Source of the DNA: Plasmodium brasilianum
Lineage: Eukaryota; Apicomplexa; Aconoidasida; Haemosporida; Plasmodiidae
NCBI RefSeq assembly: GCF_023973825.1
Contig: NW_027122941.1
Span: 1-36,846, forward strand
Direction of reading: 5' to 3'
Length of the DNA: 36,846 nt
How positions within the stretch are numbered: the stretch's first letter is position 1; each line of letters opens with the position of its first letter. The translations under genes were made by a program, and so were the position numbers. The notes beneath the pieces were generated by a model. That model saw nothing but the letters and a program-made list of their open reading frames with translations. It searched no databases and was not told the DNA's origin. This document shows, one piece after another, positions 12,822 through 36,846 of the stretch.

Positions 12822-12947
12822 TTATTTCCAAAATATAATGTTAACAATTCTAAATTTAATAGGAAAAAGTCATAACAATTAGTTATTATTAACTTAGCAT
12901 ATAAGAATATATTATCTATATTCTCTAAGTTCTCTATTCTATATAAA
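12822..12947 (+). promoter_or_regulatory. Conserved fam-gene upstream block, copy 2
   Basis: It begins TTATTTCCAAAATATAATG and ends in the core TCTATATTCTCTAAGTTCTC (from 12915) followed by TATTCTATATAAAC. The core lies 427 bases upstream of the start of the gene at 13342. It matches the blocks at 9195, 30205 and 36530 in sequence and distance. Confidence 0.6.
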
Positions 12948-13341
12948 CGTAATATTTCGAAATATAATAAAATGGTGTATTTTTTTTTATATTTTTTTTT
13001 TGGTATGAAATAATTAAAACATTATTTAATTAGTGTACCAATATAAAAAATTAGATTATATATTTTTAATGCTTATGAATAAATTGAAATTATTTTATAA
13101 TAAAGAGGATTAGTTTTTATTTTAGGTAATATTATAATAAAAATTAAATATATATTTTTAATGTTATTTTGCTTCGTATATACAGTATAATCTAATATTG
13201 TTACACGTAATTTACTAAATATTTATGAAAGAATAATAAAAGTGAATTTTAAAATAAATACAAAATCTTATATCACTCACAGTATATTCTATTGTTATTA
13301 ACATTGTTTTCATTTAATATATTAAAATATTAAGTATCTAT

Positions 13342-14232
13342 ATGATGGAACGTAAAATTAAGTCAACCATGTTCATTAAAATTTCTGTATTAATCATCTT
13401 AAATTTGATATATCATTTTAACATGGATGAGGTATGATAATACTATTTAAGCATATATGCTTATTAATAATTTCCAAGTTTAATTTTTATAAATATTAAT
13501 TTTTTGAGAGAAATGATTTATTCCTTTAAATAATTATTTTTTGCTATTGTTTTTTAGAGAGTATTTAATAGATCTATGGATGAAAGTTACGAACCTGATA
13601 GATTAGATACAAAAAATTATAGAATACTAGCAAAATGTATACATAACAGCGATTCATATACTTTAGGGATAAAAAAGAATATGCCAAAAACTACAGAATA
13701 CAAAAAAAAAGATATATCTAAAAATGAGAAACTGGACAAAAAAAAAAACAAACAATTAAATAGAAGTTTATTAAATAAGGCACAATATTATACAGAAGTT
13801 ACAGATTATAATAAAGGAATGTTTGATGGAAAACATTTCCATTTTGAAAAAAAATGGGTTAAAAAAAAAGATTATGATCATTATCTTGAAAGAAACAGGA
13901 GAATTTGTGATATATCTTTAAAAAAAATAAAATTTAGAAAATATGGAATTGGGATTTCTATGTTTCTTATTTTTCTCTTGCTGGGAATAGGAATACCCGT
14001 ATTACCAAGACTGGAGTCTTTGAAAAATGCATGGGACAGTATTAAGAATGATTCAGTATGGGATCCTTTTAAAACATTTATAGATCCATTGATACAGGGA
14101 AATGAATACTATATTTTTATAGCATTATTTAGCGTGCTTATGATTATGTTATCTATTATGATTATAATAAGTACTTACAAGATCTTAAGAAATAATGAAA
14201 AATATAATAAAATTAAGTTAATAAATGAGTAA
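13342..14232 (+). CDS. Fam-m-like exported two-membrane-span protein, two exons
   Basis: Exon 1 is 13342-13431, donor GTATGA at 13432. Exon 2 is 13558-14232, acceptor TTTTTTAG. The product is 254 residues from the first of two tandem ATGs. The second ATG (13345) gives 253 and aligns better with sisters that begin ME. A hydrophobic leader covers about residues 10-25. RILAK at 52-56 is a PEXEL-like motif with Lys instead of E/Q/D at the fifth position. The middle contains LLNKAQYYTEV, GKHFHFEKKWVKKKDY and ERNRRICDISLKKIKF, a block I recognise from P. malariae fam-m proteins; the l/m naming is from memory. Membrane spans lie at about 160-180 and 214-237, and the tail reads YKILRNNEKYNKIK. It lies 2.7 kb downstream of the fam-l-like gene on the same strand, which fits the fam-l/fam-m doublets I recall for P. 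malariae. Function is unknown. Confidence 0.87.
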
Positions 14233-16942
14233 AATGAATAATAAGGAATATATATGTTTATGTAATGAAATTTTCAATATGAATAATAAGTGTAATATTT
14301 TTGGTGATGTTCTTAAATAGAATACATATAATTTCTGAAATATTATAAATGCAAGCGAGTATATATGGTGTTTTAGAAACACAACATGAAAAATATATTT
14401 TCTTCGTTTTTTTTTGGATTTAAATATTTTAATAATTTTGTATCTAAACACAGAATATGATTTTATCTTAATAAATATTATGGAATAATGTATTTATTTA
14501 TATAATTAAATATATTTATATGAAAAATATGTGATTGTGCTTGAAAATTAATATAGTACAAAACAGATAATTATTTATAATTCTAGAAATTTATATTTGC
14601 TATAAAATGTTTTTCTTTCTATATTATAAATTGTAAACTAAAATTATTATTTATTCAGGTAAATAAGAAAATGTATTATTTTAAAATTAACAAGAAATGT
14701 CTCCTATGTTGTACTAAAAGATAGTGATGATATTTCGTTGCATTGATATGTATATGTGTATTGTTTTAGTTAATAAAGAACTTAATATATATTATAAATA
14801 ATATGCTATAAGTAAAATATGTTATAATATATATTGTTTGTAACAATTATTGTAATAAACTTCTAGACTCTCTTTCATCGTATAAAAGTAAAATTATAGA
14901 TATATTATAAAGTAATATTCCTTTAAGTAGGACACTTAATTTAGGATTTATCGATAATATTTTAATTTTACTATTATTATTATTTTATTTTATTAGTTTA
15001 CAAATATTATTAAATATAGAATTAATTATTTTTTAAGAAAAAAATATTTTTCAAGTATTTTAAAAAAAATATATTATTTTCCTCATATATATAGAAAAAA
15101 AAATTAAATTAATAGATTTTGAATTTTAAAGAGAAAATTTTTAAACCGTAGTGTTTTTTTTATTTACATTTTATATTTTTAATATATAAATGAAAGGAAT
15201 TTGTTTAGCACGGAAATTATATCTTTATGAAAATTAAATTATGTATAGATTGAATTTGTAGAACTGAATAAATAATGTTTATAGATTAATTCTGCTTAAA
15301 ATATTTTAAGTTTGTGTTACATAAATAAATTAGTAACTTATTACTATATTATTTTTATAATTTATTTTTGTTATGTGTCTTATAATGCAGTTCACCATAT
15401 ATATAATATATATTTTAATAAATTATTAATGTAGAAATAAAAACAACGATTAAAAAATATAACAGAATAAATTTGTTTTAATATTTATTAGATGTATGCA
15501 TCATTTGTTAAAACTTTTGTTTTACTAAATATACGATTACTATAAAGAAATGTTTGTGAAAAATATAACTAACAGATTGATCGCCGTTAGTACTATTGTA
15601 TTTATTCTTTTTATATAAATATGCCAATGTTTCAATAATTTTCTATAGTTTCAATATTATATATATTTTGTATTATTATTTTATGGGTCCTATTAAATAT
15701 AATGCAAAATGTATCATATCTACTTAATAGCTAAAATTCATATTTATAGTAAAATACAAAGATATACATAGTTATGTACAATGAAAAAAAATGCGTGAGT
15801 ATTGTGACGTTTTCAGTTAACAAATTACAATTATAACTGAAAATTTTATGCAATGAGAAATGTAATACCCCTTTTTTAAAATATCATTGTTATATGAATA
15901 TATAAGTAATAAGATGCATGGATACTATAAAAATAAATTCTATCTGAAAATGCAAGAATATAAGAATTATCTTTCTACTTATCAGATCTTATAAATATTA
16001 TCATGTTACTTCCTATTATATTATTAGGAATATGTTTCGTATTTTTCCATTTATATAAAGTAAAGAAAAACGAAATATAGAAACATAAATACCACTTGTT
16101 ACCATTATAATTTAATTTATAGAAAATTTAATAATTATAATATAGTGTTAAATATGTATATTATTTATCATGTATCGATTTTTTTTAATCTCTTGGATGT
16201 TATATATAAAATAGGGTATTAAGGTAGTAAAAAAATTATTATAATAATACTCAAGAAGAACATATTTATGAATTATTAACTAATGGTAAGAAGTTTTCCC
16301 AACAAAATTCAAGCAAAATTATAATGCATCTTTGTTAGCGTAAATCGTAAATGAGCTTTAAATAATGTCAAATAAAAGATATGTCAATAGAAGAAAAAAA
16401 TGTTAAAATTGTTATATAATTGGTTAAATCTTCAATTTTATAAACTGAAATAAAAAAAATAATAAAGATTTTAAATAATGTTATAAAGAAATAATATATA
16501 TATTTCTATATTTTGATTAATGTTTTCGTTTCAAGATTTTACATTTTTGATTTATATAATAATATTATTGATGTAGTTTTTAATGTTCTTTTATATTCTT
16601 TTCTTTCGTCTGCTTTAATACTTAAATAATAAATGTTATATTATATTATATTATTTTTTAATGTTATGCACGTTTAATTTAACTTCTTGTGTTATATATT
16701 TAAGTGTTAAAATTATTTATATAATATTCCAAGTAAAATATCTTGCATAAAGGCATTTTTTGACTAATGATGCTTAAAATAATAATGTATTTATGTTATC
16801 CTTTACGTTGGATAATTTTCGTAGACATATATACATTTATGATAGATAAAATTATTTATTAATAAATTTCTACATATGTATAACATATATACCACTAAGT
16901 ATCTATTTTCTATTGAAAACAATATAAACTGTGACTCTTGTA
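14233..16942. other. Intergenic region, left copy of a duplicated spacer
   Basis: No intact gene. The stretch aligns by eye, with many differences, to 31592-34304. Both follow a fam-type gene and end at the 3' end of a minus-strand PIR pseudogene. It contains a relic peptide at 15964-16080. Minus-strand frame 14218-14451 is a chance frame. Confidence 0.65.
15964..16080 (+). pseudogene. Relic of an unidentified membrane-protein gene, C-terminal end
   Basis: An open stretch of 38 codons ends at TAG (16078-16080). It reads as a hydrophobic span (MLLPIILLGICFVFF) followed by HLYKVKKNEI. A diverged version with the same ending pattern (GIFILFFFLYEVNKNNI then stop) is found at 33280-33414, the matching place in the second duplicated block. 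Upstream frames are broken by stops, though both copies keep traces of a KIS...NK..G.YK pattern. Two copies sharing a membrane span plus basic tail argue for a decayed gene rather than spacer. The family is not recognised. Confidence 0.4.
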
Positions 16943-18092
16943 TCACGTGTCTCCTTGAGGATGATAAGCCATATTATGAAAACTTCCTTCATTATTTCTA
17001 TTTACTTCATCATGTAGGTTTTGTAACGATTCTCATGTTTCTTCTTGAAATTTGTTAAGTTCAATTATTTTTTTCATTCGTAAATGACTATGTATCTATG
17101 ATTTCAATGGAGTAAACTATATGAAAATATATGTATATATACTTAAAAATATAATTGTTATGTGATCATAATTTTTGTGAAAATAACTTATACAATTTGT
17201 GATAAAATTTTATTAATTTTAATTGTAATATTTAATAACATTATATAAAAAAAATAAAGTGAAAGATATTAGTAATACAATAGCTGCTATTAAATTGGGA
17301 ACAAATATATAATCTGCATTTGTAGGTGCTAATATTTGTGGTAAACTATTGCATGGAGTCAATTTGTTCATTTTATCATCATATGCCTTCTTAAAATTCA
17401 TTAGCTCTTCACAAAAAGCGTTTTCATATATTTTTTTTGATATATTTCGTAATTTTCCTTATAAAGTTTATAACATTTTCTGATATTATCACAATAACTT
17501 GTATTATATACACTGCTTGTGCCATTATATTTGAGAAAATCTCTATAATACGTATATAGTTCTTTAATCTTATCTAAAACTTCCTTAGGTATAATTTTTA
17601 ATTCTTGAATGCATATATTTTCTGTTTCGGACGAAAATATTTTATATTCTTGAAAACAATTAGGATTCTTATTATATTTTTCATCTGCATTTATCCTATA
17701 ATTTGCGTATTTGCAACATCTGTTTCTATCCGATTTATATAGTTTCTTTATTTAAATTAAATATATACCTATCACTTGATATTTAGAGGTACAATTATCT
17801 CCAATTTTCGTACATTTCTTTCCAGGATTTTCAATATTGTTCCTGTCATTATCACTCTAAAATTTTGAGATCGTATCGTCCAACTTCTTTTTATATTTAA
17901 AATATAATGTAACAGTATTCTCCTGAAAATAAAAAAATATATAATGATTATATATAAATATGAAAAATCATATTCTCATAAAGTTTATATATATACCATT
18001 TCTAGAATATTGAATTCTTAATACAATTATATATATAATTATTATAAAATAAAAATAAATTTTACCTTTTCTTCTGTACTTCCATAGAACAT
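16943..18092 (-). pseudogene. PIR gene pseudogene, three exons recognisable
   Basis: Read on the minus strand. Exon 1 is 18092-18066 (9 codons, then donor GTAAA). Exon 2 is about 17922-17240. Exon 3 is about 17116-16943. Exon 2 carries the PIR pattern of spaced cysteines and aromatic residues, including SYCDNIRKCYKLY and FCEELMNFKKAY, then a membrane span before FFLYN. Exon 3 begins FTPLKS, as PIR exon 3 does (usually FTPxGSW), and ends HNMAYHPQ. Several lesions are visible: TAG at about 17859-17857, TAA at about 17754-17752, a frameshift near 17430 next to a run of eight A, TAG at 17098-17096 where the conserved Trp of GSW should be, and TGA near 17035. The exon 2 donor is also weak (GTTATT). 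PIR proteins are variant antigens on infected cells; this copy cannot make one, but it could act as a recombination donor (inference). Confidence 0.8.
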
Positions 18093-21000
18093 TGTATATA
18101 AGTGTACGTGAATTAAATAACAAAAATTAAATTTGTATCATATTAATATTTATATAAATGAAAAAAAAAATATAATATATTTATATGTGGTGTATTCCTT
18201 TTTTTAATACATAGAAATAAAAAAAAAGTGCTTACAAAAAGCCATTTTTACTTTTTGTTAATATTAAAATAAGGTACAATAGTTAGTAAAATATAAAATA
18301 AACTCATTTAATTGATAAAATAATTTGAAAAACAAGATTACTTTAATGTAAATGAAAAAAATATAGAAGAAAATACGCTTTCCTATTTTTTTATTTGTAT
18401 GGGGCTTATATAATTATTCTGATATATTGTACAAAGAAATAAATTAATTTTAGTTCATTATTATATACACTTTTCATTATATTGAAATATCTATATAGAA
18501 TCCATTTTGGTCTTCTAAATTATTATAAACAGATAAATATTAAAAACATAAAAGGTACATAATTTTTTTTTTCTTTTATTATATTTTTTTTATTCTTAAG
18601 GTGATGCCTTTCATAGTATTTCAATTCATATTTATAGGAAGTTTTAATATCAAAAGTATATTGGTCAAAAAGCTTAAATTCACAAATGTTACTAAAATTA
18701 AAATCAAATTAAATGAAAAAAAAATTTAACTAAAAGGAAATGTAGTTTATTAAAATAAGTAATTATGTTTTTTAATAAAAAATATATTTCTTCAAAAATT
18801 TTGTTTTAATTATAAATGTAAGATTCCATAAATTGAATATATGATGAATTATTAAATAATCTGTTTATTCTCTCCATTCTATTGTATTTGAATGTTAAAA
18901 TTTTACTTTTTTCTTTATCACCTTCAACATTGAATATTTTTTATTTTTATACTGGATATATAAATGTATACAAAAAAGTAAATATTTCTATAATATAATT
19001 GATTATAATTATATACAAAAAATAGAAAAGTTTAATAATTATCCTAACTTTTTTAATAAAATTTACTATTAAAATAGTTTGTACTTGGAAAATAACAAAA
19101 TCTTATATTCATATGTCAATAAAAATTTATTATTATAATCTCTAGAGAATACACTATATTAGTAATCATGTTTATGATAAATGTTTTTATATGCATATAT
19201 AATAAAATAGTTGCGAACATTAATATCATAATACTTTCAAATTTTGTATATGTTACTACTATTCTATTTATAGATATTATATCTCAGATGAGTTCAATAA
19301 CATAATGAAATTTAATTCAAGTTACTTAGAAAATAATAATTATTTCTACTTTTTTTTTATATATCATATTATTTAAAAATATTTTACTCTTATATAGATT
19401 TAATATAATTTATAAATCACAATATACAATATTATAATTCTCTCAATTTATTCATCATATAATTAAATATATTTTAAAAAGAATAAGAAAAGAATAAGAA
19501 ATTTGTTTTTTTATTATTAATATATATATGGAATGAAGAGTTTTTTTAATCACGAATAATGATTAAGTTAAAATAGCAGCATAATTATTATAATTGTTAA
19601 GTATTTTTTAATGTTATTTTATAATAGATATTCTTTGTTTCTTATTTTATTACTTTATTTTTCATAATATTATTTATTTTTCTTTATGTATTATCATATT
19701 GGGTTGTTTATAAAAATAAAATGACTTTTTTTAATTTCTATTAATGCATTTAATTAAATAGACCTGTTTGAATTTAATAATATACTAACTTATTATTAAA
19801 TATAATTTTAACCAAATATAAAAGGAACAAGATGATGTATCCATTTTTATAATGATTATAATGGAATTATTTGATACTTTATTATTTCTACATAGTGAAA
19901 TTTCACTGTAAGACTTTCGTGTATATGCATACATTTTTTAAAGTATTATAAATATTTTCAAGAATTATAAGAATACCTGTGAATCAGTTAATTATGTACA
20001 GAGCATTTTTTATTTTCTTATACTTATGAATATTTTATAGTGTACTCTCAATATTTATATTATTATAATTGTTAGTTTAAAATATATTTTTCATTTTATT
20101 TATGTGCATTAGTTTTTGCATAGTTTTTTAGTATTTTTTTTTTATTTTAGAAAAAATTATGTTACTTCAGAAACATTCCAAATAAAGTTTCTTTTATAAT
20201 GAAATTCCAATTTTTTTAATATTCATTTGTAAGAAATAATAATAATAACTATATATATATTATAGATATATGTTTTTGTTTTTGTTTTTTTAAATATATT
20301 ATTCCTCTTCTATTTCAGGAAATCATAAATAAATTAATGGTACATAATTTATGAATGAGCGGGGTTAATATGACAAATAAGAAAATTCATGATATAGAAT
20401 GAAAATGCATTCACTTTTTATAAATTTATTTTATATCATATAAAATACATTTAAACACACTGGAAGACAGTCTTGAGATAAAATACCAAGAAAGAATTAT
20501 TTTAAAAGTGTAATCTATATCTCATTATAAATATATCTGTTTAAAATGTATCTTCTCTGATTTAACTAATATCACTTTGAGAATTAGTAAATATATAAAT
20601 AAAAAAAATGCAACACCTGTATATTTCATTTATTACGCTTTACTATAACAATAAAAATGAAGACTTATATCGATGTAATAATAATAATTAACACTACAAT
20701 ATATTATCGAAGAACCTGTAATTATTAATTACATATGAAGGCATTATTAAAGTAACAATAGTAATATTATCATGTATATACAATATGAATTATTCCTTAG
20801 GGTGTTCAATTAAACCAATGTTTATATTATTTTTTTACATAATTGTAGTGATAACTGAATTTTTCACAAATTAATTGAATATATATTATATCTAAAATAT
20901 ATATATAATAATCTTTACATTTTATTTATTTTTTATATGATTAAAAGATTAAGTTATTGGACAATAATTAAGAAAATATTAATACATAATTTGTTGGATT

Positions 21001-24000
21001 TCTTTATAAATAACATTTATTGAGGATTAAATAATGGAAAGTTCATATATCATTTCTAAATATGATATGTACTATTATTCATGTATATTGCTAGTAATTA
21101 CATTAGATATAATAAATAATTTAATTAATGGGTTTTGACATAATTACCGAATTGTAAACAGTGAAAACCTTACTTTACTAATAACATATATTACTTGTTT
21201 TGTTTTTTAGTATGATTATTCTCTATTTTTTTAATATGTTTTTTGGTTCTATTAATTTATAACCATATATTTATGTTTTAGGACACTGATTTTATTATGT
21301 ACTAAACAAAGATATTAGGTAATATATATTACAGGAATTATTTAAGTCTTATTATGGGTGTAGCTATTCTTAAAACGTTTTAATATATTATTAATTTTTA
21401 TAAATATACTAAATTTGTATTTTTACTAATACCATATATTAAATAAATTAGTTAAAAAATAAGTATCTTGAAATAATTTCCTTCGGTTAATTTTACTTTT
21501 GTTTATTTTATAATATATTTAATATGAAACTTGATATAATAATATATTAATATATTTTAAATGTAACTAGTACTTGCATAAATATTTAATGAAATATTTA
21601 TGGATGTATATTATTAGCCACATATTACTTGTATATAATTGGAATAAAACTATGTTATATTAAGACATTCTAGAAAATGAAAAATTAATAAAATTTATGC
21701 CTTATGTATAAAAATAATAAATCTATATAAATTATTTTATTACGATAGAACTAATAATTATAATATGGACGTTTTATTATTCGCATTAAATTATGAAAAA
21801 ATATACATTAAATATCTAATGAGGAACTCAAATTTACGCCATATGTAACTAAATATGGTATGAAATATATTTAATGATATATAATTAGAGTAAATATATG
21901 AATATAATATATTTATTAGAAAGTGTTATATACCTTAGTTGAAATATTAATTTATTTGCTTATCTATTCAACAGATTAAAAGCATATGATCATAATTTTA
22001 TATACACTTCTATTGAATTATGTAATATAAATTTATCCGTAAATATTGTATTTGTTTATTTTCAACATATCGATGTATATATAAAAGAAAATTATACAAA
22101 CATATATATTGTTTAGAAATGAGAATGGAACTGATTTATGTGGTATATATATTCATTTAATAAATTACTATTAATTCATTTATGTAATTTTTAAATGAAA
22201 CACTTTTTTTCATTAAACTAATACATTCTTTTTATCATGTATTATTTATTTATTTTACTAATAAAAACATATAATTCATTAAACCACGTTTACTATGTGT
22301 GCATTTATTATTTTGTATTTGTGATAAGTAACTAATGAGACATTTTGGTGTTTATAAAACTTTATAAATGTAATATATAAAAGTATAATCATAAGAATTT
22401 AACCATTAGGACGTACAATATAAATTGAGAAATAATCTCATAAGATAAGAATTTTATTTACATTTTAATAATTCTTAATAATGAAGTATACATTAAAATC
22501 TGTTAATATGTAATTTTCGTATAATTTAAAATATTTCATTACGTTTAAAAAATATATATCTTTTATATTTCTTCAAATTATATTTACAGAATAATCCATA
22601 TCATTCCTTATAAATAAAAACATAATTAATCATCTGTAAAGCTAATTGCTATTTTAGCTCTCATCAAAAAATGCATAATAACCATTACCATCTAATGTAT
22701 ATCTCAATATACGTACAAAATCATAGTATAAAGATAAACTATAGATATTAAAAATAGATCTTTCTTCTTTTAATACGTTATTCTACATAAAAAATTATAA
22801 TGAGTTATAATATACAATCTATAATCAAGAGATAAAGTAGTTTTTGATTATGTATAATATTGGGGGATTCTAAATATATTGATTTATTAATATGATACTT
22901 TATTCTTTAGTTTATGAAAAATATATTACTATTACTAAAGATACGCAAATATTTATAAGAATAAAATTGAAATATTACAAAAATGATTAAAAAATAAAAT
23001 ATTTTTATTTTTTCCTCTTATAACTTCAATAAAAAAGAAAATTTTTTTATATTAAATATATTAATTATATAGTTAATTAATTTAGTCAGAATAATTCATA
23101 GAAGTATAATATATTTAATGTAATACATAAAAACAATTAAATATTATAAAAATAATTATATATTTTATAATTATTATAGAAAGACTATGATTTTAAATTA
23201 CTAAAATGGTAACTTATGAAATGGAAAGTACAAGTATTCTCGTAAAATAAAATAAATAAATTTATATAAAAAGAAAAATTATTAAGAATATTTTTAAAAA
23301 AGTATAAAAGTATCAAAACAAATTAAGCATTTTATTGTAATTGCGTGCTGCTCATTTTAATATCATTAGTTATTTCTTTATGGTTCATAAATGGAAAAAA
23401 TAATAAACTTAATTAAAATTATTGTTAAGGCCTTTAATTAAATAAAACATATAATGTAAAAAAAAATATATAAATGAAAAAAAGAATATAATATTCATTA
23501 AAAAAAAAAAATTCCAATATTATTTTTTTTTTTTTCATATAAAAACTAAATATTAAATATTTTTTTATTTCTTCTTTGCATCGTTATTAAGAAAGCATTG
23601 ATTTACTAGAACGTAAAAATTATTTGTATCAAAATATAAAAATAAAACCAAAATAAAACATTATAATTATGAATAAAAATAGAAATCAATATTAATTAGA
23701 AAAATAAGGAGAAAAGCAAAAATGTAATAATAAAACAATATATTTTTTTTTTATGCGTAATAAAGAATGAAGAGTAAAATCCCAGGAATATATATGTATA
23801 AGCTATAATAATACTTTATGTGTAATATTCTTATAATAACATGATAATCTCTTTATTCCTAATTTATAATTTATTATATGTTATTTTTTAAAATAAATTT
23901 TAATGAGAAATACATATTTACAGAAACATGAAAAATAAAATATACGTTAATATTTTATTAAATATTGATGTGATAAATAATACTGCAGTTAATTTATAAT

Positions 24001-25212
24001 TAGAAAAGAGAAAATATATAAGAAATATTGAAGAATATCTACAAAATTCTGAATATAATTATGTTATCAATCAACATTGTGTATACACAAAAGATTAAAA
24101 AGTTATTTTAATTACATTTTCCAAAATATGCATATATATTTAGACTGCATTAACTCCTTTTCAGCTGTATTTAATATAATATATTTATTATGCTACAAAA
24201 GTTAATAGTGCTTTATCCTGATTTTAAGAAAAATAATTTTTAATTTTTTTTTTAAAACGCTTTTATATTATATAATATATAGTATATATGCTTGTTTAAT
24301 ATATATATAAATAGTTTGATGCATAGAAAAATTCATACTGAGGGGACTGTATTGTTGAAAAAAAAATTAAATATTAACCTAAAACATAAAGTTTTCATTG
24401 AAAGAAGAAAACAATATTTAGTTACGTTATAAGGATTATTTAAGAAATTATAAGAAATAAAATAAACAATATATTATAACCCATATATTTTATCATTTTA
24501 AAAACCATGTATATTTTATGTTGCGTGTTTTTGTAATATTCCTTCTTCAATTACCTATTTTTAATATTTATAATATTATTTTTGTTAATTTTGTTAATGA
24601 GTGTATATTTCATTGTATTCCTTATGATGCCATAAATATATAGATAAATTTGTATGAATATAAATGGAAAAGATTCATCAAAAAAACTGTAATTTTTTAA
24701 TTTTATTAGATATTTACAATAGGATATATGCAAATATTTAAAATTACAATAGTGTTAAAAAAATTAAAAATAACAATTCATTACAATTTTAAAATTTTTA
24801 TGTAAAAGATGTTATTTCTTTTTATGAAAATACTCTAATTGTAATTCATTATATATATATATATATATAATAACGTGTGCTATGTTGTGTACATTTGTTT
24901 TATTTATTTGTTATTATATCGCATTAAACATATTAAAAGTATTAGTGTTTTTATTAAAATTATCAATATAGTAGAAAAATACAATTATAATTTTTTGTAC
25001 AAAATAAGTTAGATGATATTTTAACTAAGTAATATATACATATACGTGTAAAGATTAATGAAGAAAAAAACATCGGAGAAAACTGTTTGCATATATGTTA
25101 TCATTATTTAAGCATAAATAAATGAATAAATATATATATATATATAATATACATATGTAGCTCTCTATCATTTAGTATATATTTATCATCAAATTTAAAG
25201 GAAATTATAGAA
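18093..25212. other. Gene-free AT-rich subtelomeric DNA, 7.1 kb
   Basis: I find no gene, splice-compatible exon pair or clear pseudogene. Short open frames such as 24551-24733 on the minus strand show no domain. The first few hundred bases should contain the promoter of the minus-strand PIR pseudogene. The last few hundred should hold the promoter of the PIR gene at 25213; these include a TA tract at about 25131-25146. Confidence 0.65.
24850..24869. repeat. (TA)10 microsatellite
   Basis: A 20-base uninterrupted TA repeat, about 350 bases upstream of the PIR gene. Confidence 0.9.
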
Positions 25213-27161
25213 ATGGAAGAAATCGATTATGTATATTTTCATTTTTCGTACAAACAATAATTTATATTTCCTTATTAAAATAAAATATTTTACATCAAAA
25301 AACATAAGAATATTCACTTATTATAAGAAATATTTAAGTATTTAAACTATTCATATTTTATAATTTATTTTTAGGATAAAATTTTACAAAAGTTACCTTC
25401 ACATAAGATATATGATGCTTTCAATAAAGAGGTCACTGATACTCAATATAACAGCCTTTGTAATATATTTAATTCTGTAAAAGATGATTACAAAAATAAA
25501 ACTATTGATCTTTGTAAAAAATTTGCAAGAAATTTAGAAAATTTATCTAAAATAAGTACATCAGGGAACAAGTACGATAGTTGTTCTCATTATGTGTACT
25601 GGGTTTATGAAGAAATCAGGAAATTGTTTAAGAAAGAAGCATCAACTGATGATGTCAAAACTATTATTAAAAATTTTAATAAATTAAACACTTTTCTTAT
25701 TAGTAAATACGCAGTATTTAATTGTAATTATTATTTTTTTTATAATGACTTGTTAGAATTGGATAACAAAAGAGAAGAGAAATATTTACATGATTATTTT
25801 AAAAATTATAGTAGTATTAAAAGTAGTGCTAACTGTAAAAGCGTTGGAATTGATGATTATAAAAAGTACCTTAATGTTGTCAGAGATGTTTATAAAAGAA
25901 AGAAGAATAATTGTTGTTTTAATGGAATTTCGTTGTGTCAAAGTTATTTCTTGAATTGTAGTGATAATCTGGATCCAAGTAAACTCATATATACGTTAGA
26001 ATCTACAAGCGCTGATTGTAAAAAACTAGAAAATATATCTAATACTGAAACAGAAAAAGAAAAATTAGATTCTAGGGAATTCGAGGAATTTTTGAAGTCA
26101 ATTAATTTTACTTCATGTCCTGGTCTAGTTAGTGACGAGCCTTCAACATCTACTAGAATATCTACTTCAGGTAATGGTATATCTTCAGAGAGTAATATTA
26201 AAACGCATTCATGTAGTTTATTAGGAGCAAATATCAAGCCCTATATTACTGTGACTGCAGATATAGGCAAGGAAAAATTAGAACAATCTGAGGGTATTTC
26301 TTCTAGAGGACATATATCAACATTAGGTGGAGATTTAGCAAATACTGATAGTGGAACGAGAAGTAATGAAGAATTTAGTAGTAATTCTGAAAGGAATATT
26401 AATGTTTTTCCTGGAAAAAATGGAAAAAATGTTGATTTAAGATGGAAATTAGATGAAAAAGGAAAACTACGCTGTCCTAGTGACAAACCAGGGGAAGATA
26501 AAACAGGACTTTGTATGTACGTGGAAAAATTGGTTAACCAAGATATACTTGTTAGATTAGAGGAATCTGGTGGTTATCGTTTAAATAAGGGAAAGAAATG
26601 GCCAGCACAATCATTAAAAATAGTTCTTAAAAATGATAAGATAGGTCAGTTAGCGATAATTAACTCACAGGAATTAAGAAATCCTAAACATCTGCAAGCT
26701 TTAAAGGCTCATCAAGCAGTGACTACTAATATTAAAAATCCAAATTATCATGCACTTCCTAGAAATTATTCAGAATCTATTATATTACAGAATGCTTTTG
26801 TGCGTGCTTCCATTGTAGCTTCTTTAGTAATGGGATTAATTTTTGCGTTTTTCCTTTATTTTAAAGTAAATACCAAAATCCATTTCGTGCTATAATTAAA
26901 TTATGAGTTTCTATTTATAACAGATTTATTTTAAAATGTTTTAACTATAATATAATCACACTTAATATGTGTTACATCTTTTATTTTGTTTATTAGTTTA
27001 CTCCCTTTGGATCATATGTAGGTAAAATTAAAAAAAAAAAAAATAGACATAGATATAATTTAGCTGCTTTACATACTCAAGGATTATCAAAAAGATTCAT
27101 AAAACGAACTTATAGGCATTCTAACAGAAGGAGATTTAGTGTAGTATATATAGAAGAATGA
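25213..27161 (+). CDS. PIR (Plasmodium interspersed repeat) protein, three exons, long form
   Basis: Exon 1 is 25213-25230 (MEEIDY, donor GTATAT). Exon 2 is 25375-26865 (acceptor TTATTTTTAG, donor GTAAAT). Exon 3 is 26997-27161 (acceptor TTTATTAG). The phases agree and no internal stop is present, giving 557 residues. The start fits the PIR pattern: MEEIDYDKILQKLPS then IYDAF, followed by a Cys-rich helical domain with CSHYVYWVYEEIRKLF and CCFNGISLCQSYF (residues 1 to about 230). A Ser/Thr-rich linker runs from about 258 to 350. About 130 further residues with two cysteines (about 373 and 386) precede one membrane span (about 484-502). Exon 3 begins FTPFGSYVG and is strongly basic (KKKKNRHRY, HSNRRRF), as in PIR cytoplasmic tails, with Tyr replacing the usual Trp. 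No PEXEL or signal peptide is seen, which is usual for PIR. The product is expected to be a variant antigen at or near the infected-cell surface. It is longer than the PIR sizes I recall (roughly 250-400 residues). Confidence 0.93.
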
Positions 27162-30100
27162 ACATAATTTTCTTGGTGTTATACATAATATCAAATGATT
27201 AATTTTTAAGATATTAAAAAGTATACAAAATTGAGATAAATGTGCATTTCTATTAATTATCCATAATTTAAAAAAGCAATAAATAAAGAGCTACAGTTAA
27301 AATATATTCCTTCTTGCTTTTAACTTTTTATATTAATTTGTATGTGTTTTTTTGTATATATTTTAATAATATTATTAATTGAATTTTTATATAATACTGA
27401 TTTTTTATTAAAATTTTATTTTTTAAATTACTATAATTTTAGCAGACACTATTATTATTACTTATATATAAAAAAATAGAAATGATTATAATGTTTAGTA
27501 ATAATTTAAGGCTCTAATAAATCTTGAGTTTCTGTAATATATTGGTTGAATATTTTTATTTATTTTAATTTTACCTATTATATACTAAGTTCATTTAATA
27601 ACTTGTTAAAGCTTCTAATATAAGAAATGTATTATAGCTATAATTAATGTAAAAATTAATTTAAATTTACATGTACAATGAATAAGTTTAAAACTAGTAA
27701 ATTAGCAAATAAAATTGTACCTCTACTAACTTTAGAAAATGTAAACATAATGTAACTCATAAAACAATAATACTTTGTGCATTCTAATAAAAAAAGATAA
27801 ATAGAAAATTAAGATTAAAGATTATGTTATCATTCATGTAACAAAGTTTTAAATTTCTAACAATATTTATATAGTCTTATTTTATATTATTTTTTCGGTA
27901 AAATGATATTGCATCTGACGAGCATTGCATCTTTTTATATACGATAAAGTTTATTAATATTCTGAACGCTATACCAGATAAGACTTTTATTAAATATATA
28001 ATTAATTAAAGTTCAATATTAAATATATTCTCGATATGTTTAATTAATACAATTTATATTATTTGTCAGAGGAATTTATTATAAATATACATGAAAAAAT
28101 TAATTAAAAGAATATCATCATTAAAAAAGTTTATGCATTTATTTGTGTCAAAAAAAAGAATTATGAAATAATAAGTATTATACTAGATAACTATATTAAG
28201 TATACGTAAATTATATTATATTACTACTGTTCTCTGACATAATTATATGTAAAATTTTAGTGATGTTCCATTAGCAGTTATATAAAAATATATCCATTAT
28301 TCAATATTAGAAAAAAAAAACTTTTAATTATATATTTATAGAATAAATACATACAAACTAAAAAAAATAACGATTACAAAAAAACTTTAATATGAGCCTT
28401 TAGAAGATATAATATACATAAAATAAAGTATCAAAAACTACCAGAAAATAAAAATTTTTGTGTCAGTGATATATATAAATATTTTAATAGATCTTATTAC
28501 CTAATGTAAGAATTATATTACTGTTTAACTTATATGTTATACACTTACTTTTTAGTATTTTAAAAACATTAACTAAAAACTATTATTTTAATTTTTTTCA
28601 CGTTTTTTATATTATTTTTATTTTTTATTTTTTTTGTAATTTATCATTAATTTATTTATTACATTTATATAAGAGTGTTTTTATTTATTTTTGCAATGTT
28701 TCATTGTTAGTTTATAAGATTAATTAATCATTATAAAAAACAATATTTCAATTTAGTCAATAATATTATTGATATGAATTTTTTTTATTAATTAGATTAA
28801 AATTTATTAATAATTATTTTATATTTTATTATTCCAAAAATACGAATAAATGCCATATAAAATAGACCTATAACTATTAAAACACATTAAATAATAGAGA
28901 AAACAAAATATGTTAAATAGATAATTTTTACACTCATATACTTTTTTACTATTATGGCTTCATAAATTAAACTATGTATACTATTCAAAGTCTAATTCAC
29001 AATGTATAAGAAATGAAATTATGAGGGATAACTTTAGAACTACAATACTGCTGTTAGGTGTTTCATGAGAACTATAATTGTTTTTGCAAAGTTATTATTT
29101 ATATGTTCTTATGTATTATTCATTTGAATTATTCCTTTTAACTTTTATCTTTTTGAATTAAAGATAATCTAAAAATATCATAATTCATAAGAAAATGTTT
29201 GCTTTAATTTTTGTTATTTATATATAATCACTATATTATTATAATATTTTCTTATGTTTTATTGTTACTATATAAAATATAGCGGTAATAAATATTTTTA
29301 GAATTATACATAATTCTTATTATAATTTTAAATTCGTTAAATCATTAATACACATTTTTAATAATTAGTGGATGTAATATATATAAATTATATACAGATT
29401 AATCATTTATACTTTTTCTATAAGTATATGTTATTAAATTATTTAAAATTATTTATATACATATTACACCTTCCTATTTTAATTTTTAAGAATAGTTTAC
29501 TTTATTGTGAATTTATTTTAATTATTAAATTATTAATATAATTTTTTTCATAAAAGATGCAATTTTATTTAGTAAAAGTGTAATTTAATTAATTATTTAA
29601 TTTCAAAGTATTTTAAGTATTTACAAGCAAAAAGTTATTAAACTAATAAGATAAAAAAAAGAATGCTTATTTATTTTTTATATAATAACAATTAAACTAC
29701 ACCATTAGGTCAATATATGCTGCATTATAAAAAAAGAAAAATATAGAATTCCCATTTTATTTTATATAAATGCAAAATTTTATATAAATAGATTAATAAT
29801 ATATTACTTTCTTTTTTTTTTTTTCTTATTTATTATACAAATATTTCTTCTAAATACATAATGAACTAGAAAAAAAAGAATTTAAGCGCATTCAAAATTT
29901 TTCATTTAGAAATAATTGAATAAATTAATTATATTAAAAAGTTATGAACTTCAAAAAATACATTACAAAAATAAAAAAGCATTCATTATTTTCCTTTAAA
30001 ATATATATTTTTTTTATTAAGTAGTATATTAGAAATTTTGGTTTTTCAATATATTATAAAATATGTGTAGTATGATAGATTTACATGGTAAATAAATGAA

Positions 30101-30204
30101 TGAAATATATAACACAAAAATTAGCACATATTATATTTTTTTTTTGTTAAAATTTTTACTATTATTATATTTTTACATTAATTAATGTTTTATTAATAAT
30201 AAGT
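27162..30204. other. Intergenic region
   Basis: No gene or pseudogene that I can support. It separates the PIR gene from the next fam-type gene and contains scattered homopolymer runs. Confidence 0.65.
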
Positions 30205-30337
30205 AATTTTTCCATAATATAATGTTTATAAAATTATCATTAATAGAAGGAAAATATTGTTAAAATTATTTATGATTCTCTCCATAAAAAGGGAAACAAA
30301 TTATCTATATTCTGTAAATTCTATATTCTATATAAAC
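30205..30337 (+). promoter_or_regulatory. Conserved fam-gene upstream block, copy 3
   Basis: It begins AATTTTTCCATAATATAATG and ends with the core TCTATATTCTGTAAATTC (from 30304) followed by TATATTCTATATAAAC. The core lies 407 bases upstream of the start codon at 30711. It corresponds to the blocks at 9195, 12822 and 36530. Confidence 0.6.
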
Positions 30338-30361
30338 TTAATATTTAGATATATTTATATA

Positions 30362-30381
30362 TTTTTTTTTTTTTTTTTTTT
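30362..30381. repeat. Poly-T tract, 20 bases
   Basis: A run of 20 T directly downstream of the conserved upstream block. The copy at 12822 is likewise followed by T-rich runs near 12980-13001, so the tract may belong to the shared 5' region. Confidence 0.9.
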
Positions 30382-30710
30382 GAAGTATAAAAAACAATTA
30401 TTTAAATATACTTATATATTAAACAACTAATACATATATATTGGATAATTATTAATTAGCGCGTATTATATTATGTTTACAAAAGGTAATTTTGTTTATA
30501 ATTAAGACTAAGTTAATAATTTTACAATATATTTTTAGAGTTATATTCCTTTTTATTTATTGTAAAATGCATTATAATTATGTACTATAATTAAATGTTT
30601 ATGAAATAATATTAAAAAAATATATATAATGTTCTTTGTAATTAGAAGAATACAATTTTATTATTAAATATTTTCTCAATGAATATATTACAATATTAGA
30701 ATTTTGAATC

Positions 30711-31591
30711 ATGGAAGAAAAATTTAAGTTACAATTTTTTATTAAAATTTTTTCGTTTCTCATTTTAACATGGATAAATCATTTTAACAATAACATGGTA
30801 TGATAATAATATGGATACATGTATTATAAATATTATACTCATTTTATTTCTATTAATAATTTTGTTAGTATGAAATTATTTGTTTTTTTAAATTATGCAT
30901 GTATTCCTTGTTTTGTCAGAGTAGCTTTAATAAATATTTAGATAAGAATTATGACAATAATAGAAAATTAGGTCAAATAACTTATCGTTTACTAGCAAAA
31001 CGTAAACAGATGAAATGTCCATATACAGTATGGATGGATGATGTGATACCAAATAATGGAAAGTACATAAAAAAAGATATATATAATAATGAAAAAATAA
31101 ATGAAGAAAAAAATATATTGGAAGATAAAGGTTCATTAAAAAGTGGAAAAAACTATAAGCTACCTAGAAGAACTGAATCATCTATGTACATTCGAGGAAA
31201 TTCATATTGTAAAAAGAGAATATTTGACAAAATTTATTATAAAAATATAGTTAGGAATTCATGGATTAAAGATTTTATATCTTTAAAGGAAGATATAAAA
31301 TTAAAATTACTTGGGATTTTTATTTTAGGGAGCTTCCATGTACTAGTTGGTATCACGTTAATAGTCTTAGGAAAATTGGGGTACTTGGATGATGTTAATA
31401 ATGTTATGTGTTTATTTAATAAAATAAGTCTATTTGTTGTGTTATTTTATATATTAACTTTTGTAGTTGCTGTAGCAATGTTTTTTATACAAAGGAGAGT
31501 TGTAAAATATTTAAAAGCTTTAGAAAAAAAATATGATATTAATAATACGGCATATCCTTCTTTACGTAAGGTAGCTATCTATAATAAATAA
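30711..31591 (+). CDS. Exported protein related to fam-l/fam-m, divergent C-terminus, two exons
   Basis: Exon 1 is 30711-30797 (MEEKFKLQFFIKIF..., donor GTATGA). Exon 2 is 30920-31591 (acceptor TTTTGTCAG). The product is 252 residues. The leader exon and the first part of exon 2 align with the genes at 9715 and 13342, including RLLAK at 52-56 and a following IPNNG...KKDIYNNEK stretch. It also carries RKLGQ at 44-48, which fits the canonical PEXEL pattern RxLx(E/Q/D); the other two genes lack this. The C-terminal half differs from both: KRIFDKIYYKNIVRN, then two spans at about 158-180 and 199-219 with a short loop, and a basic tail. This resembles what is usually annotated only as 'Plasmodium exported protein, unknown function'. 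Export to the red cell is the likely fate; the role is unknown. The start is set by alignment with its sisters. Confidence 0.87.
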
Positions 31592-34304
31592 GATCTGTAA
31601 TACCATAAATAATATACACAAATAGCACACATAACAATAAATTACTTAGATTACATATATCCAAATGCACTTAATATCTTTGTTAACCGGCAAAAGTAAA
31701 AATATATTCCTTTAATTGTTTTATTAATTTGAATTTTTCAATGACTGCACTTTATATTTTAACGTTTTTTTTAATTATAATAGCATATTATAATATATAT
31801 ATCTATATTTTACATTATTTTTAAAAAAATATAAACATGTTTTTTAATGTTAATATATAGAAGTCCGATCCGTATAAATCTATTGATGTATTGTACCAAA
31901 TTACATTTGCTACTATAAAAAATAATACTAATTATTATTTTACATTTTTTTCAAGACACAAATTATTAAATCCTGTGTAAATAAAAAAAGTAATTATTCG
32001 TTTAAATTTAAAACTAAATATGTCTTTTTTAGGGAATTATGAATTGAATTGAATGTACTTTGTTGTATAAATTCATATATTTATAATAAAATCAAATTCA
32101 TTGTTTATTTTAGGAAATAATATTTATCATACATATAATATTATATATATTTATTTTAAAATATATTTTTAAAAAACGCGTTATTTTTTTTTAATATTAT
32201 AATTATTAGGTTATAAATATATAATAATATAATATCCTTTTATGTAGAATCCATAGTCTAGTGGAGTATGGTTAATATTTTAATTTTATCCTGGTTCCTT
32301 TTTTTCTTTATATGATAATTTTACGTACATAATTAAATATATAATTCTTTTTTAAAATGAATAGAATATACTTCAAGATTCTAAGAAATCGAAATATTTT
32401 TTTTATTTATATACCTAAAAAAAAGAAAAAAAGTTTATAGACTATTTAAATTTTAAAAGTATCTTTTAATTTGCAAAATTTTTTTTTTCTTTTAATAATA
32501 TACATTTAAAATATAAATGAAATCAAGGTTTTTTTTTTTTTGATTGATATAATTTTTTTATAAATAATAAATTAAAATATGTTGAATTCTGATGAGAATT
32601 AAAAAAATAATTTTTATATATTAATTTTTTTAAAAATAACATAAGTTTATAATGCATAAATAAGTGTATAAAGAAGAGTTATTTTATTATTTTTATAATT
32701 TTCTTTGTTATGAGCATTATTACACTGTTAGAATATATATATATATTATTATAAATATTTACATTAAAATTAAAGACAATGATTAAAAAAATATAACAAT
32801 TTAAATAGTGTTTTTATATTTATTTAAAGTATGACCATATGCTGAACACTTTTTTTCTACTAAATTTATGATTACTATAAAGAAATGATCAAGTAAAATA
32901 AAATCGACTACTTCCTTATTAAAAAATTATTTGGGTTTATACTTTTTATAAGAATATTCCAAAATTTCCATGAAGTGATATAGTTTCTTTAATATATATT
33001 TTCTTCTTTATTTTTTTGGATGTGGTATTTATTACAATTAGAAAAATGTCATATGTATGTTAGTAAATAAAATTCGGATATAAAATAAAATCCGAGGTAA
33101 TACATTGTTATGTGAAATAATAAAAACGAGTGAGTATTCTGAAAATTTTAATGTACAAATTAGAACAATACATAAAAAATACACATAATGGAAAAAGAGT
33201 GTTCCATTTATAAAATATCATACGTTTAGTAATATGTATATAATAAGTTCTATGGAAACTATAAAGTAGAATTGTATGAGGAACCTTAAGTAATGTAGAA
33301 TTATATTTCAACTTTCCTGATCCTTTTCATAATTTCGTGTTACTTTCTATGACATTTATTGGAATATTTATCTTATTTTTCTTTTTGTATGAAGTAAATA
33401 AAAATAATATTTAGGAACATGAACAATGTATTTTGTTACTATAATATGATTTATAGAAAAATAGATAATTATAAGGTAAATTCATATATATTTCTTATTT
33501 ATCATGTATCTATTTGTTTAATTTACTTAGATGTTAAATATATAAAATGGTATTAAAAAAGAAAAAGAATTAAGAATTGTGCTTGAGAGGAATATATTTA
33601 TCAATTATTAATTAATGGATATGAATCTTTTCATTTATATTTGAGAAGTACTAAAATTAACCTATCCTATCATATTGCATAAGGATTCTTAATACATTGT
33701 CACATAGAACATCTAAAAAATCAAGATTGCAATATTAATATTGTTGTATTCTGGGTTGAATTTTTAATTCAACTTAATTGTAAGAAAATAAATAATGATA
33801 GAAGCTTAAAATAATGTTAGTTATAATTAAATAATATCTATTATTTTTCTTTTTGATTAATGTTTTTATCTTAGGTTATTGTTTTTTTATTATGTAATAA
33901 AACTATTATTGTTATATTTGATTCTTTTGTTTTGTTTTGTTTTCTCCCCCTTTTTAATACTTATGTAATAAACATTACTTCATATAATTGTACATGAGAA
34001 TCAGCATATTCTTATTAATCTTGCGTTGTATATTTATGTTTTAAAAATATTTGTTTTCCATTCTTAAAAAAATTTCATACAAATGTTAATTTTTCTGCTT
34101 ATGACTTTTACCATAGGGTTGAATTTATGTCATGCTTTTTTTTAAAATATATTTACATCATTATTTTTGTAATTTTTAGACAAATGTATTCATTTATTTA
34201 TTTTTATTTTGTCTTATGTATTAATGAATTTCCTCTTATACGTAACATATACACGAATAAATGTTCGACTTTCTAATGAAAATAATATAAACTCTACTTT
34301 TGTA
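31592..34304. other. Intergenic region, right copy of a duplicated spacer
   Basis: This stretch is the partner of 14233-16942. Matching landmarks include a stretch ending ATTACTATAAAGAAATG (near 15534-15552 and 32868-32887) and a TTTATCATGTATC stretch (near 16165 and 33500), in the same order. No intact gene. A relic peptide lies at 33280-33414. Minus-strand frame 33108-33311 is not supported. Confidence 0.6.
33280..33414 (+). pseudogene. Relic of an unidentified membrane-protein gene, second copy
   Basis: An open stretch of 44 codons ends at TAG (33412-33414). It reads GTLSNVELYFNFPDP, then a hydrophobic span ending GIFILFFFLYEVNKNNI. It lies 1823 bases after the stop of the upstream fam-type gene, while the first copy (15964-16080) ends 1848 bases after its own. 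The two share the pattern GI-(3)-FF-x-LY-x-V-x-KN-x-I before the stop. Frames further upstream are interrupted. The family is not recognised. Confidence 0.4.
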
Positions 34305-35535
34305 TCAAGTGTAGAATTGTGGTTGATAGTCTATATTATGAAGACTTCGTTCATAATTTATATTTGCTTCATAATGTGTGTTTTGTGGTGATTATATTGC
34401 TTCTTTTTCAACTTATTTAAGTTTAATTAGTTTTTCCTTTAGTAAACGATTACGTAGATATGATTTCATTGGAGTAAATTATATGAAAAAAAAGATATAT
34501 ATATGTAATTAAAAGTATTATTTTATTGTTTTTAATACTTTGTGTGATAATGAATTATAAGAATTGTGATACGTTATTCACATTATTAATTATAATATTT
34601 ATTAATCTTATATAAAAAAATTAAGGTGAAAATTGTTAGTAATAATGCAGATATTGTAAAGCTAGCAACAAATACATAATCTATTTTAGTAGGTGGTAAA
34701 TTTGTGGCACACCAGGACAAGAAGTTACATTACACATTATATTATTATATATTTCTTTAAAATCGTTTAATTCTTTACAAAAAAAGTTTTTAACTTTTTT
34801 TTGGAATTGATAGTAATATTGAATAAAAAAGTCAAAGGAATTTTTAATATGTATACAATAGTTATCATTAGAATCAAAATATTGCCCATTAAAATTGTTA
34901 GAAGCATTATCATAACTGTATAGTACTTAGAGTTTTTTAAAATTTCTGTATCAATATTTTTAAACTCTTGCACGAATATATTATTTAATTGGGACGGAAA
35001 TTTATTTTATATCTGAAAATTAAGTGGCATTCTTAATATATTTTTATTAAGCGATTATCAGGTAATTCAAATCTTTATAATATTTGATGCTATAAGAATT
35101 ATATTGTTCATTTAGTACAATTAAATATCCAACAGTATCTAGACTTGATATTATAAATTCGTTATTTCAACTACTGCCACATTTCTTTCCTGGATTTTTA
35201 GCACTTTACCCGTGTCATTTTGAACATCTGAAATAGCATCTACAATTTCCTTTTAATGTTTAAGATATAATGTCACAGAATTTTACTAAATATAAAAAAA
35301 AATGATATTAATTTTATAATATACTTGTATGTTTTTGACTCTACTAACAGAATTCATTTTTTAAAATAAAATTAGTTTGATATTAACATACATAATACAG
35401 CAATTACTCATTTTATTCTATATAAATTAATAACTACTTCATTAAAAATTAATAATATATTTATAATGAAAATTAATTAACTTCTTAATTAAATGTAAAT
35501 AAATTTTATGAATAAATACATTACCTGCATAACAT
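34305..35535 (-). pseudogene. PIR gene pseudogene, heavily decayed paralogue of the one at 16943
   Basis: Minus strand. Traces of all three exons can be followed. The exon 1 remnant is about 35535-35525 (ATGTTATGCAG, then GTAA). Exon 2 is about 35280-34600, with NSVTLYLKH, NPGKKC, VQEFKNIDTEILKN, FCKELNDFKEIY and a membrane span ending IFLYK. The exon 3 remnant begins at 34478 (FTPMKSYLRNRL) and ends near 34305 (HNIDYQPQ). Each piece matches the pseudogene at 16943-18092 in the same order. Decay is further advanced: several stops, at least two frameshifts (one near 34700), a shortened exon 1, and the exon 3 acceptor changed from TATAG to TATAA. The minus-strand frame 34767-34973 is only a shifted reading of this relic. 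It makes no protein. Confidence 0.75.
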
Positions 35536-36529: not shown

Positions 36530-36656
36530 TTATTCCAAAAATATAATTTTAATGTAAAAATTTATAATATTTATATATCAATTAAAAGAGTAATATTTTT
36601 CTAAAAATATAGCGCAAAGTATTCTCTATATTCTCTATATTGTGTATATATTCAAT
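36530..36656 (+). promoter_or_regulatory. Conserved fam-gene upstream block, copy 4 (gene outside window)
   Basis: It begins TTATTCCAAAAATATAAT and contains the core TCTATATTCTCTATATTG from 36625. The sequence after it (TTAAATAATTACTTAAATTA, then TATATTTTGAATAT) also matches the region downstream of the block at 9195. By the distances seen in the three complete genes (407-427), the start codon should lie at about 37032-37052, beyond the right edge. Confidence 0.55.
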
Positions 36657-36846
36657 ATATTAAGAAATCAAATATTATATTCTTTAACTTATATATGAAA
36701 TAATTATTAAATAATTACTTAAATTAATGTATTAAATAGATAATTTATATATTTTGAATATTTGTTATTGAATTCGAATGATATTATTCTAATTCAAATT
36801 ACCTTTTTAAAGTTAGGATTAAAATAAATACTTTATAATATACTTT
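36657..36846 (+). other. Probable 5' leader region of a fam-type gene beyond the window
   Basis: This stretch aligns with about 9326-9520, the region between the upstream block and the start of the fam-l-like gene at 9715. No coding sequence is reached before the window ends. Confidence 0.45.

What the first reader, a model, noticed from the sequence alone, without database searches (positions are those of the whole stretch)
12822..35535. Duplicated block: fam-type gene, relic membrane peptide, minus-strand PIR pseudogene
The order of elements is the same at 12822-18092 and 30205-35535: upstream block, two-exon fam-type gene on plus, relic membrane peptide, PIR pseudogene on minus. The gap from gene stop to the pseudogene 3' end is 2711 bases in one copy and 2714 in the other. 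The spacers share small landmarks in the same order. This points to an old segmental duplication, after which both PIR copies died, apparently to different degrees. The fam genes diverged so far that their C-terminal halves no longer align by eye, although the non-coding spacer kept its length.
Basis: partly seen in the sequence, partly recalled or inferred. Interest (0 to 1): 0.75.

Follow-up and report, generated by a model that had tools for sequence, protein, structure and literature searches.

The report
Shuffled malaria chromosome-end gene cassette
Two look-alike blocks in this malaria-parasite sequence are members of a cassette scattered over many chromosome ends, and in one group of copies the non-coding stretch between its two antigen-type genes stays nearly uniform while the genes on either side look reshuffled.

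Summary
12393-17954 and 29762-35318 align end to end; the spacer alone scores 631 bits against at most 51.8 in 100 shuffles. The interpretation needs changing: the pair was not made by copying one block to the other. The window is a whole contig of Plasmodium brasilianum. Hits of three capped searches group into 62 further places with spacer or pir similarity, and both copies have far closer relatives on other contigs (95-96%) than each other (69%). The cassette is: fam-type gene (PF12420), about 3 kb, convergent pir gene. On seven long contigs it reads towards the near contig end in 25 of 26 places. The pir exon is open in 7 of 26 copies examined, including five of A's nearest relatives, so the two pirs died separately.

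The new part: in a group of 13 cassettes the spacer core is uniform (93-96% to one reference copy), while the fam gene (75-100%; three not listed) and the pir 5' flank (79-96%) vary independently, and the closest pair on one side is the most distant on the other. Nearby sites in the core carry a recombination signal. Best reading: non-allelic exchange between chromosome ends through the spacer. An artefact of the hybrid assembly is not excluded.

The parts
9881..10669 (+). X: second fam-type gene (exon 2) upstream of A on the same strand, its probable doublet partner
   Evidence: PF12420, 269 bits
12393..13341 (+). A: 5' flank of the fam gene
   Evidence: 0.66 identical to B's 5' flank
13342..13431 (+). 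A: fam exon 1 (limits by my reading of the GT...AG intron)
13558..14232 (+). A: fam exon 2, open; fam-m by database names
   Evidence: PF12420 188 bits; 88% to an NCBI 'fam-m protein' of P. malariae
14233..14816 (+). A: 3' flank of the fam gene
   Evidence: 0.59 to B; similar stretches follow other fam genes of the window
14817..16894 (.). A: non-coding spacer
   Evidence: 0.68 to B; 96% to C18, 74-77% to 13 other places
16895..17250 (-). A: 3' end of the pir (last exon and tail, by my reading)
   Evidence: 0.76 to B, best-kept element
17251..17954 (-). A: broken pir exon 2; longest open piece 17404-17751 (116 aa)
   Evidence: 50% aa identity to the open pir exon of L021
18091..20814 (-). A: 5' flank of the pir, shared with many other cassettes but not with B
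   Evidence: 75% to C10 and C13 up to 20814; 0.54 to B
29762..30710 (+). B: 5' flank of the fam gene
30711..30797 (+). B: fam exon 1
   Evidence: protein P0001, 252 aa
30920..31591 (+). B: fam-type exon 2, open (MKS88_000316)
   Evidence: PF12420 153 bits
31592..32132 (+). B: 3' flank of the fam gene
32133..34256 (.). B: non-coding spacer
   Evidence: 0.68 to A; 95-96% to two places on C18 and one on C43
34257..34617 (-). B: 3' end of the pir
   Evidence: 0.76 to A
34618..35318 (-). B: broken pir exon 2; longest open piece 34684-34926 (81 aa)

Best explanation
Both blocks are members of a dispersed, polar cassette family of P. brasilianum chromosome ends: a fam-l/fam-m-type gene reading towards the chromosome end, then about 3 kb to a convergent pir gene. 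Cassettes on different chromosomes recombine with one another non-allelically. The spacer offers long collinear homology, so exchanges or conversion tracts that end in it re-pair what lies on its left (fam gene and promoter) with what lies on its right (pir and its 5' flank), and in one group of 13 copies this has kept the spacer core nearly uniform while the genes on both sides keep older, divergent variants. Shown here, within this assembly: dispersal, polarity, re-paired flanks, and a recombination signal inside the spacer core. Inferred: that exchange is the cause of the uniform core, that the spacer's likeness helps the exchange, and that the result serves antigen diversity.
For: 62 further places and fixed order and spacing. 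In five cassettes at both ends of C1 and C7 and at the right end of C2 the spacer core is 0.933-0.951 identical in all ten pairs, against 0.56-0.95 in the 5' flank and 0.75-0.94 distally; L014/L021 is the best pair in the 5' flank and the worst distally, L016/L023 the reverse. In 12 further cassettes matched by place the spacer is 93-96% to L021, fam 75-100% (nine listed), pir flank 79-96%, fam and flank uncorrelated (rho 0.08, n=9). Six testable fam dS values (0.07-0.58) and ten pir dS values (0.14-0.35) exceed the spacer divergence of the same pairs (p 0.054-0.111). PHI-type test in eight copies: incompatibility of near sites 0.20 vs 0.464 (SD 0.013) when permuted, p=0.0005, the floor of 2000 permutations. 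C7 and C13 differ by 0-3 per 100 bases from the fam gene to about 4000 (7 in one bin there), 0-3 to about 4800 in mid-spacer, then 3-12, then 8-38 in pir exon 2.
Against: The four B-type copies are alike over the whole 8 kb, without a specially uniform spacer, so the pattern is shown in one group only. A itself stands about 24% off that group in the spacer. In 20 diverged copies the linkage along the cassette is weakest in the pir body, not in the spacer, so some exchange points lie in the pir. The loci read were found by likeness to the window's spacer or pir, which favours alike spacers. The assembly is a polished MaSuRCA hybrid, and chimeric joins would tend to fall in the most alike segments. 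No G3-type quadruplex motif was found in the window, so that proposed trigger is absent.
Confidence: 0.72

Rival explanations
1. Local segmental duplication: one block on this contig was copied to the other place, and both then decayed.
For: The two blocks are collinear over 5.5 kb and lie 17 kb apart on one contig.
Against: Both have much closer relatives on other contigs, and their neighbourhoods follow different places.
Confidence: 0.03
2. The spacer is kept alike by its own function (regulatory RNA, 3' ends, boundary element), not by exchange.
For: It is better kept than the fam gene in 20 diverged copies (tile means 0.66-0.69 vs 0.54-0.59) and its length is steady, 2975-3130 bases between fixed alignment columns.
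Against: Spacers of different groups differ by 24-35%, which steady constraint strong enough for 5% within the group would not allow; no Rfam match; no long open frame in the window's spacers (52 aa +, 50-72 aa -); recombination signal in the core.
Confidence: 0.08
3. Assembly artefact: chimeric joins in alike spacers and short-read polishing mixed copies, which mimics exchange.
For: Hybrid MaSuRCA assembly polished with Pilon. The perfect match of 34012-36846 to C43 runs to the contig end, and the end of C4 repeats C18 against the usual orientation.
Against: Joins alone would not make the spacer core more alike than the silent sites of both neighbouring genes; re-pairing is seen over at least 12 further cassettes on nine contigs.
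Confidence: 0.12
4. Plain birth and death of whole cassettes by segmental duplication, with faster evolution of the genes and no exchange.
For: Fits the B-type group, alike over the whole 8 kb.
Against: Best and worst pairs swap along the cassette; silent sites are more diverged than the spacer; PHI-type test; C7/C13 step in mid-spacer.
Confidence: 0.05

Closest known systems
fam-l / fam-m doublets of P. malariae (Rutledge et al. 2017, PMC5326575; passages and the first part of section 2 seen)
   Same: Same gene families (PF12420), telomere-facing, two fam genes in a row (X and A); about half of pir genes are pseudogenes there too.
   Different: The paper reports fam-l with fam-m as the unit and found no co-evolution of neighbouring pir and fam-m genes. 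Here the pir lies at a fixed distance behind the fam gene in many places, and the linkage between them is weak but present (r 0.43, 21 copies), in line with re-pairing.
Segmental duplication SD1 of P. falciparum chromosome ends (PMC2279139; outline and abstract seen)
   Same: A multi-gene block of more than 10 kb with variant-antigen genes repeated on several chromosome ends.
   Different: SD1 is described as conserved with its genes; here, in the 13-copy group, only the non-coding core is uniform and the genes differ.
Mitotic recombination among P. falciparum var genes (PMC5093961; passages seen)
   Same: Exchange between antigen genes, mostly at chromosome ends.
   Different: There the points are var-associated and near quadruplex motifs; here several steps lie in the spacer, and the window has no G3-type quadruplex motif.
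70-bp repeats upstream of trypanosome VSG genes (recalled, from no call)
   Same: Shared non-coding sequence beside variable antigen genes that serves as recombination homology.
   Different: Not homologous; the spacer here is not a short repeat array, lies at the 3' ends of two genes, and no recombination role has been tested.

Membership tests
Fam-L/Fam-M (PF12420) | Match to PF12420 above its cut-off | tested here: met
   X 269, A 188, B 153 bits; cut-off 34
Fam-L/Fam-M (PF12420) | Short signal-type exon 1, intron, long exon 2 | tested here: met
   Read in the sequence for A and B; B agrees with P0001, 252 aa
Fam-L/Fam-M (PF12420) | Faces the telomere | tested here: inconclusive
   25 of 26 related places on seven long contigs read towards the near contig end; the window's own contig is unplaced, so A and B cannot be tested
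Fam-L/Fam-M (PF12420) | Export motif and export to the red cell | not tested
   no call
pir/vir (PF05795) | Match to PF05795 | tested here: inconclusive
   The window's two open pieces do not match; seven open relatives in the same slot do, four over the cut-off of 28 bits and three below
pir/vir (PF05795) | Uninterrupted long exon 2 | tested here: not met
   A and B: longest pieces 116 and 81 aa, against 239-272 aa in seven other copies; so pseudogenes
Local segmental duplication | The two copies are each other's closest relatives | tested here: not met
Dispersed chromosome-end segmental duplication | Collinear copies on several chromosomes | tested here: met
Dispersed chromosome-end segmental duplication | High identity across the whole block, genes included | tested here: inconclusive
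   Met in the four B-type copies, not met in the 13-copy group, where only the spacer core is uniform

The most novel reading that the evidence does not exclude
The convergent spacer between fam-type and pir genes is a recombination platform: it is kept alike across chromosome ends by repeated exchange, so that fam and pir variants are re-paired, and broken pirs persist as anchors and donors rather than as genes.
Probability: 0.2. Interest if true: 0.75.

Novelty: new variant of a known kind. Interest (0 to 1): 0.5.

Why it matters
It gives the little-studied chromosome ends of P. malariae/P. brasilianum a repeating unit and a testable account of how two antigen-type families are reshuffled. 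Non-coding DNA that is more alike than the silent sites of both neighbouring genes is the reverse of the usual expectation and makes the question of where chromosome ends recombine testable with long reads. Five searches of the held library listed no paper that, by title and start of abstract, describes a fam-spacer-pir unit or such a uniform spacer; that library lacks most subscription papers, and I opened four papers, none in full.

Tried and rejected
Local duplication: rejected by nearest relatives. Non-coding RNA: no Rfam match in the window, no tRNA. A hidden gene in the spacer: the longest open frames in the 2 kb tested are 52 aa (+) and 50-72 aa (-) in the window's copies and 41-95 (+) and 44-165 (-) over all 26 rows, the largest minus values being L011 and L026, which have no pir match behind the spacer. 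The frame of the 'relic peptide' is not kept in many of 20 copies. Quadruplex trigger: no G3-type motif in the window, one weak G2-type at 10488. The C18 deletion junction was only looked at. My recalled idea that A is fam-l was wrong: database names say fam-m. Pfam on the window's pir pieces gave nothing useful.

Sampling and dropped rows. Each of the three searches behind one search scored 40 candidates of 77, 87 and 65, so 62 is a lower bound. I left out the window's own rows, a few short fragments, and five rows at places already in the list. DNA of 25 of the 62 places was read: 20 in contig order (C1 to C8), two on C43, three on C18 picked as closest relatives. They were found by likeness to the window's spacer or pir; and the flank comparison were made because of that. 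L019 (cut by a contig end) was dropped; L011 from the correlations (and, in the reduced figures, L029, L031, L032 and L033, leaving 21 copies); L011, L026, L029, L031, L032 and L033 (20 copies).
Full report
What was checked. The two blocks align end to end: 14817-17954 with 32133-35318 at 68.2% (1008 bits) and 12472-13748 with 29851-31113 at 66.5%. The spacer alone scores 631 bits; 100 dinucleotide shuffles reach at most 51.8 and seven other window stretches at most 38.3. By element the spacer (0.68) and the 3' part of the pir (0.76) are better kept than the C-half of fam exon 2 (0.53), and past the pir the similarity ends (0.54).

Where it is. The window is the whole of contig C34 in a 31.4 Mb, 43-contig assembly. 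B's protein is MKS88_000316 of Plasmodium brasilianum, on a contig of 36846 bases. The size fits the published genome of 14 chromosomes and 29 unplaced contigs, made with MaSuRCA and Pilon (PMC9671904, passages seen); that this is the same assembly is my inference.

Not a local duplication. Spacer A has one relative at 96% (C18), then 13 at 74-77%; spacer B has three at 95-96% (C18 twice, C43) and two full-length ones at 75-76% (C8, C26); A and B are 69% alike. Hits of three searches, for the two spacers and A's pir region, group into 62 places besides the window's own, a lower bound. A's neighbourhood (1900-9900 and 11247-16601) follows C18 from about 148 down to 133 kb at 88-95%. B's follows two places on C18 and one on C43 at 94-96% from about 28.6 kb to the contig end, and at 85-86% over 26.9-29.8 kb. 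Further left, 20.81-25.26 kb is collinear with C18 78-83 kb and part of it with C43 281-283 kb at 70-73%.

The cassette. DNA of 25 of the 62 places was read. All 25 have spacer similarity, L011 and L031 only part of it. Just upstream, at a nearly constant offset, 22 of 25 have a fam-type protein match: A-type best in 10, B-type in 10, X-type in 2; L009, L017 and L019 have none in that test. Of the 22 loci L009-L030, 20 have a pir match and L011 and L026 do not. On C18 (L031) the stretch equivalent to 16602-19171, pir included, is missing. The distance between the columns equivalent to A's fam stop and A's 17251 is 2975-3130 bases in 20 copies. On seven contigs of known length of 0.77 Mb or more, 25 of 26 places read towards the near contig end, counted by hand; the exception lies at the very end of C4.

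State of the genes. The fam exon is open over 200 aa or more in 23 of 26 copies. The pir exon 2 is open over 239-272 aa in 7 of 26 rows; three of the other rows (L011, L026, L031) have no pir in that place. All seven open frames match PF05795, four above and three below the cut-off. Five of A's nearest relatives are open and the four B-type copies are all broken, so the window's two pirs died separately. Among those five open pirs dN/dS is 0.66-1.28; for fam pairs of A's group that could be tested it is 0.45-0.79.

Uneven divergence. In five cassettes, at both ends of C1 and C7 and the right end of C2, the core from about 900 bases after the fam stop to the pir membrane segment is 0.933-0.951 identical in all ten pairs. 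The same pairs range over 0.56-0.95 in the 5' flank, 0.72-0.94 in fam exon 2, 0.72-0.87 in pir exon 2, 0.77-0.96 in the pir 5' flank and 0.75-0.94 distally. L014/L021 is the best pair in the 5' flank and the worst distally; L016/L023 is the reverse. Silent divergence of the fam (dS 0.07-0.58, six pairs) and of the pir (0.14-0.35, ten pairs) exceeds the divergence of the stretch from 3' flank to spacer in the same pairs (p 0.054-0.111). To lean less on the loci that I had read, I searched with L021's spacer core, fam gene and pir flank and matched the hits by place: in all 12 other copies with a spacer above 90%, the spacer is 93-96, the fam 75-100 in the nine listed (three not among the 40 scored) and the flank 79-96; fam and flank do not correlate (rho 0.08, p 0.83, n=9). 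In eight copies near informative sites of the core are far more compatible than in permuted order (0.20 vs 0.464, SD 0.013, p=0.0005, the floor). C7 and C13 are nearly identical from the fam gene to mid-spacer (with a small patch of differences near 4000), then part. C1 and C7 (L014, L021) run at about 95% for 9 kb except for a patch over pir exon 2.

Results against the reading. The B-type group shows block-wide likeness without a special spacer. A is about 24% off the uniform group in the spacer. Across 20 diverged copies the linkage is tight within the spacer (0.84-0.94 between tiles from 15600 to 16800) and weakest across the pir body (0.38 between tiles 16400 and 17600), so exchange points lie in the pir at least as much as in the spacer. 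Over 21 copies the correlations are 5' flank-fam 0.72, fam-spacer 0.73, spacer-pir 0.54, pir-flank 0.79, 5' flank-pir flank 0.17 (p 0.11). A polished hybrid assembly could create false joins in the most alike segments; the uniform core beside divergent silent sites argues against that as the whole story, but no reads were available. A single recent spread of one spacer version, rather than continuing exchange, is also possible and would need the same kind of exchange.

How it most likely works. Ends of the same orientation pair through long collinear homology, of which the spacer is the most alike part in this group. Exchanges or conversion tracts that end there move a fam gene with its promoter, or a pir with its flank, into a new partner cassette, and keep the spacer alike within the exchanging group. 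Shown, within this assembly: dispersal, polarity, re-paired flanks, recombination signal in the spacer core. Inferred: the mechanism, selection that keeps gene variants apart, and any benefit to the parasite.

Comparison. Telomere-facing fam-l/fam-m doublets and many pir pseudogenes are known (PMC5326575); conserved multi-gene duplications at P. falciparum chromosome ends are known (PMC2279139, abstract); recombination among antigen genes is known (PMC5093961, passages). A fam-spacer-pir unit with a uniform non-coding core was not listed. I rate it a new variant of a known kind.

Noticed in passing
window 34012-36846: Identical to C43 (one indel at 35293) up to the contig end, while the part before it is 85-98% alike in 250-base bins: a very recent exchange or a contig-end artefact.
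   Followed up: partly
window 1900-9153: 7.25 kb block 98% identical to C10:2079220-2086480 and 95% to places on C12 and C18.
   Followed up: no
window 25375-26892: Plus-strand open frame of 506 aa with a strong PF05795 (Vir) match, a pir-type gene that looks open, between the two blocks.
   Followed up: no
L031 (C18:129000-138304): Cassette 95.5% like A from 11247 to 16601 that then continues at the equivalent of 19172: about 2.57 kb with the pir is missing.
   Followed up: partly
L019 (C4:1232019-1238050): The last 6 kb of contig C4 gives the same scores as a stretch of C18 (about 175-178 kb) for two queries and runs against the usual orientation: inverted copy or assembly fault.
   Followed up: no
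L011 (C1:1482434-1492433); hits on C24 (two) and C28: Four places keep only the first part of spacer B and stop at the same point, equivalent to 32762: a truncated form of the cassette.
   Followed up: no
L014 and L021, about 6100-6700 of L021: Two cassettes on C1 and C7 are about 95% alike for 9 kb except for a patch of 600 bases over pir exon 2, as a gene-conversion patch would look.
   Followed up: partly
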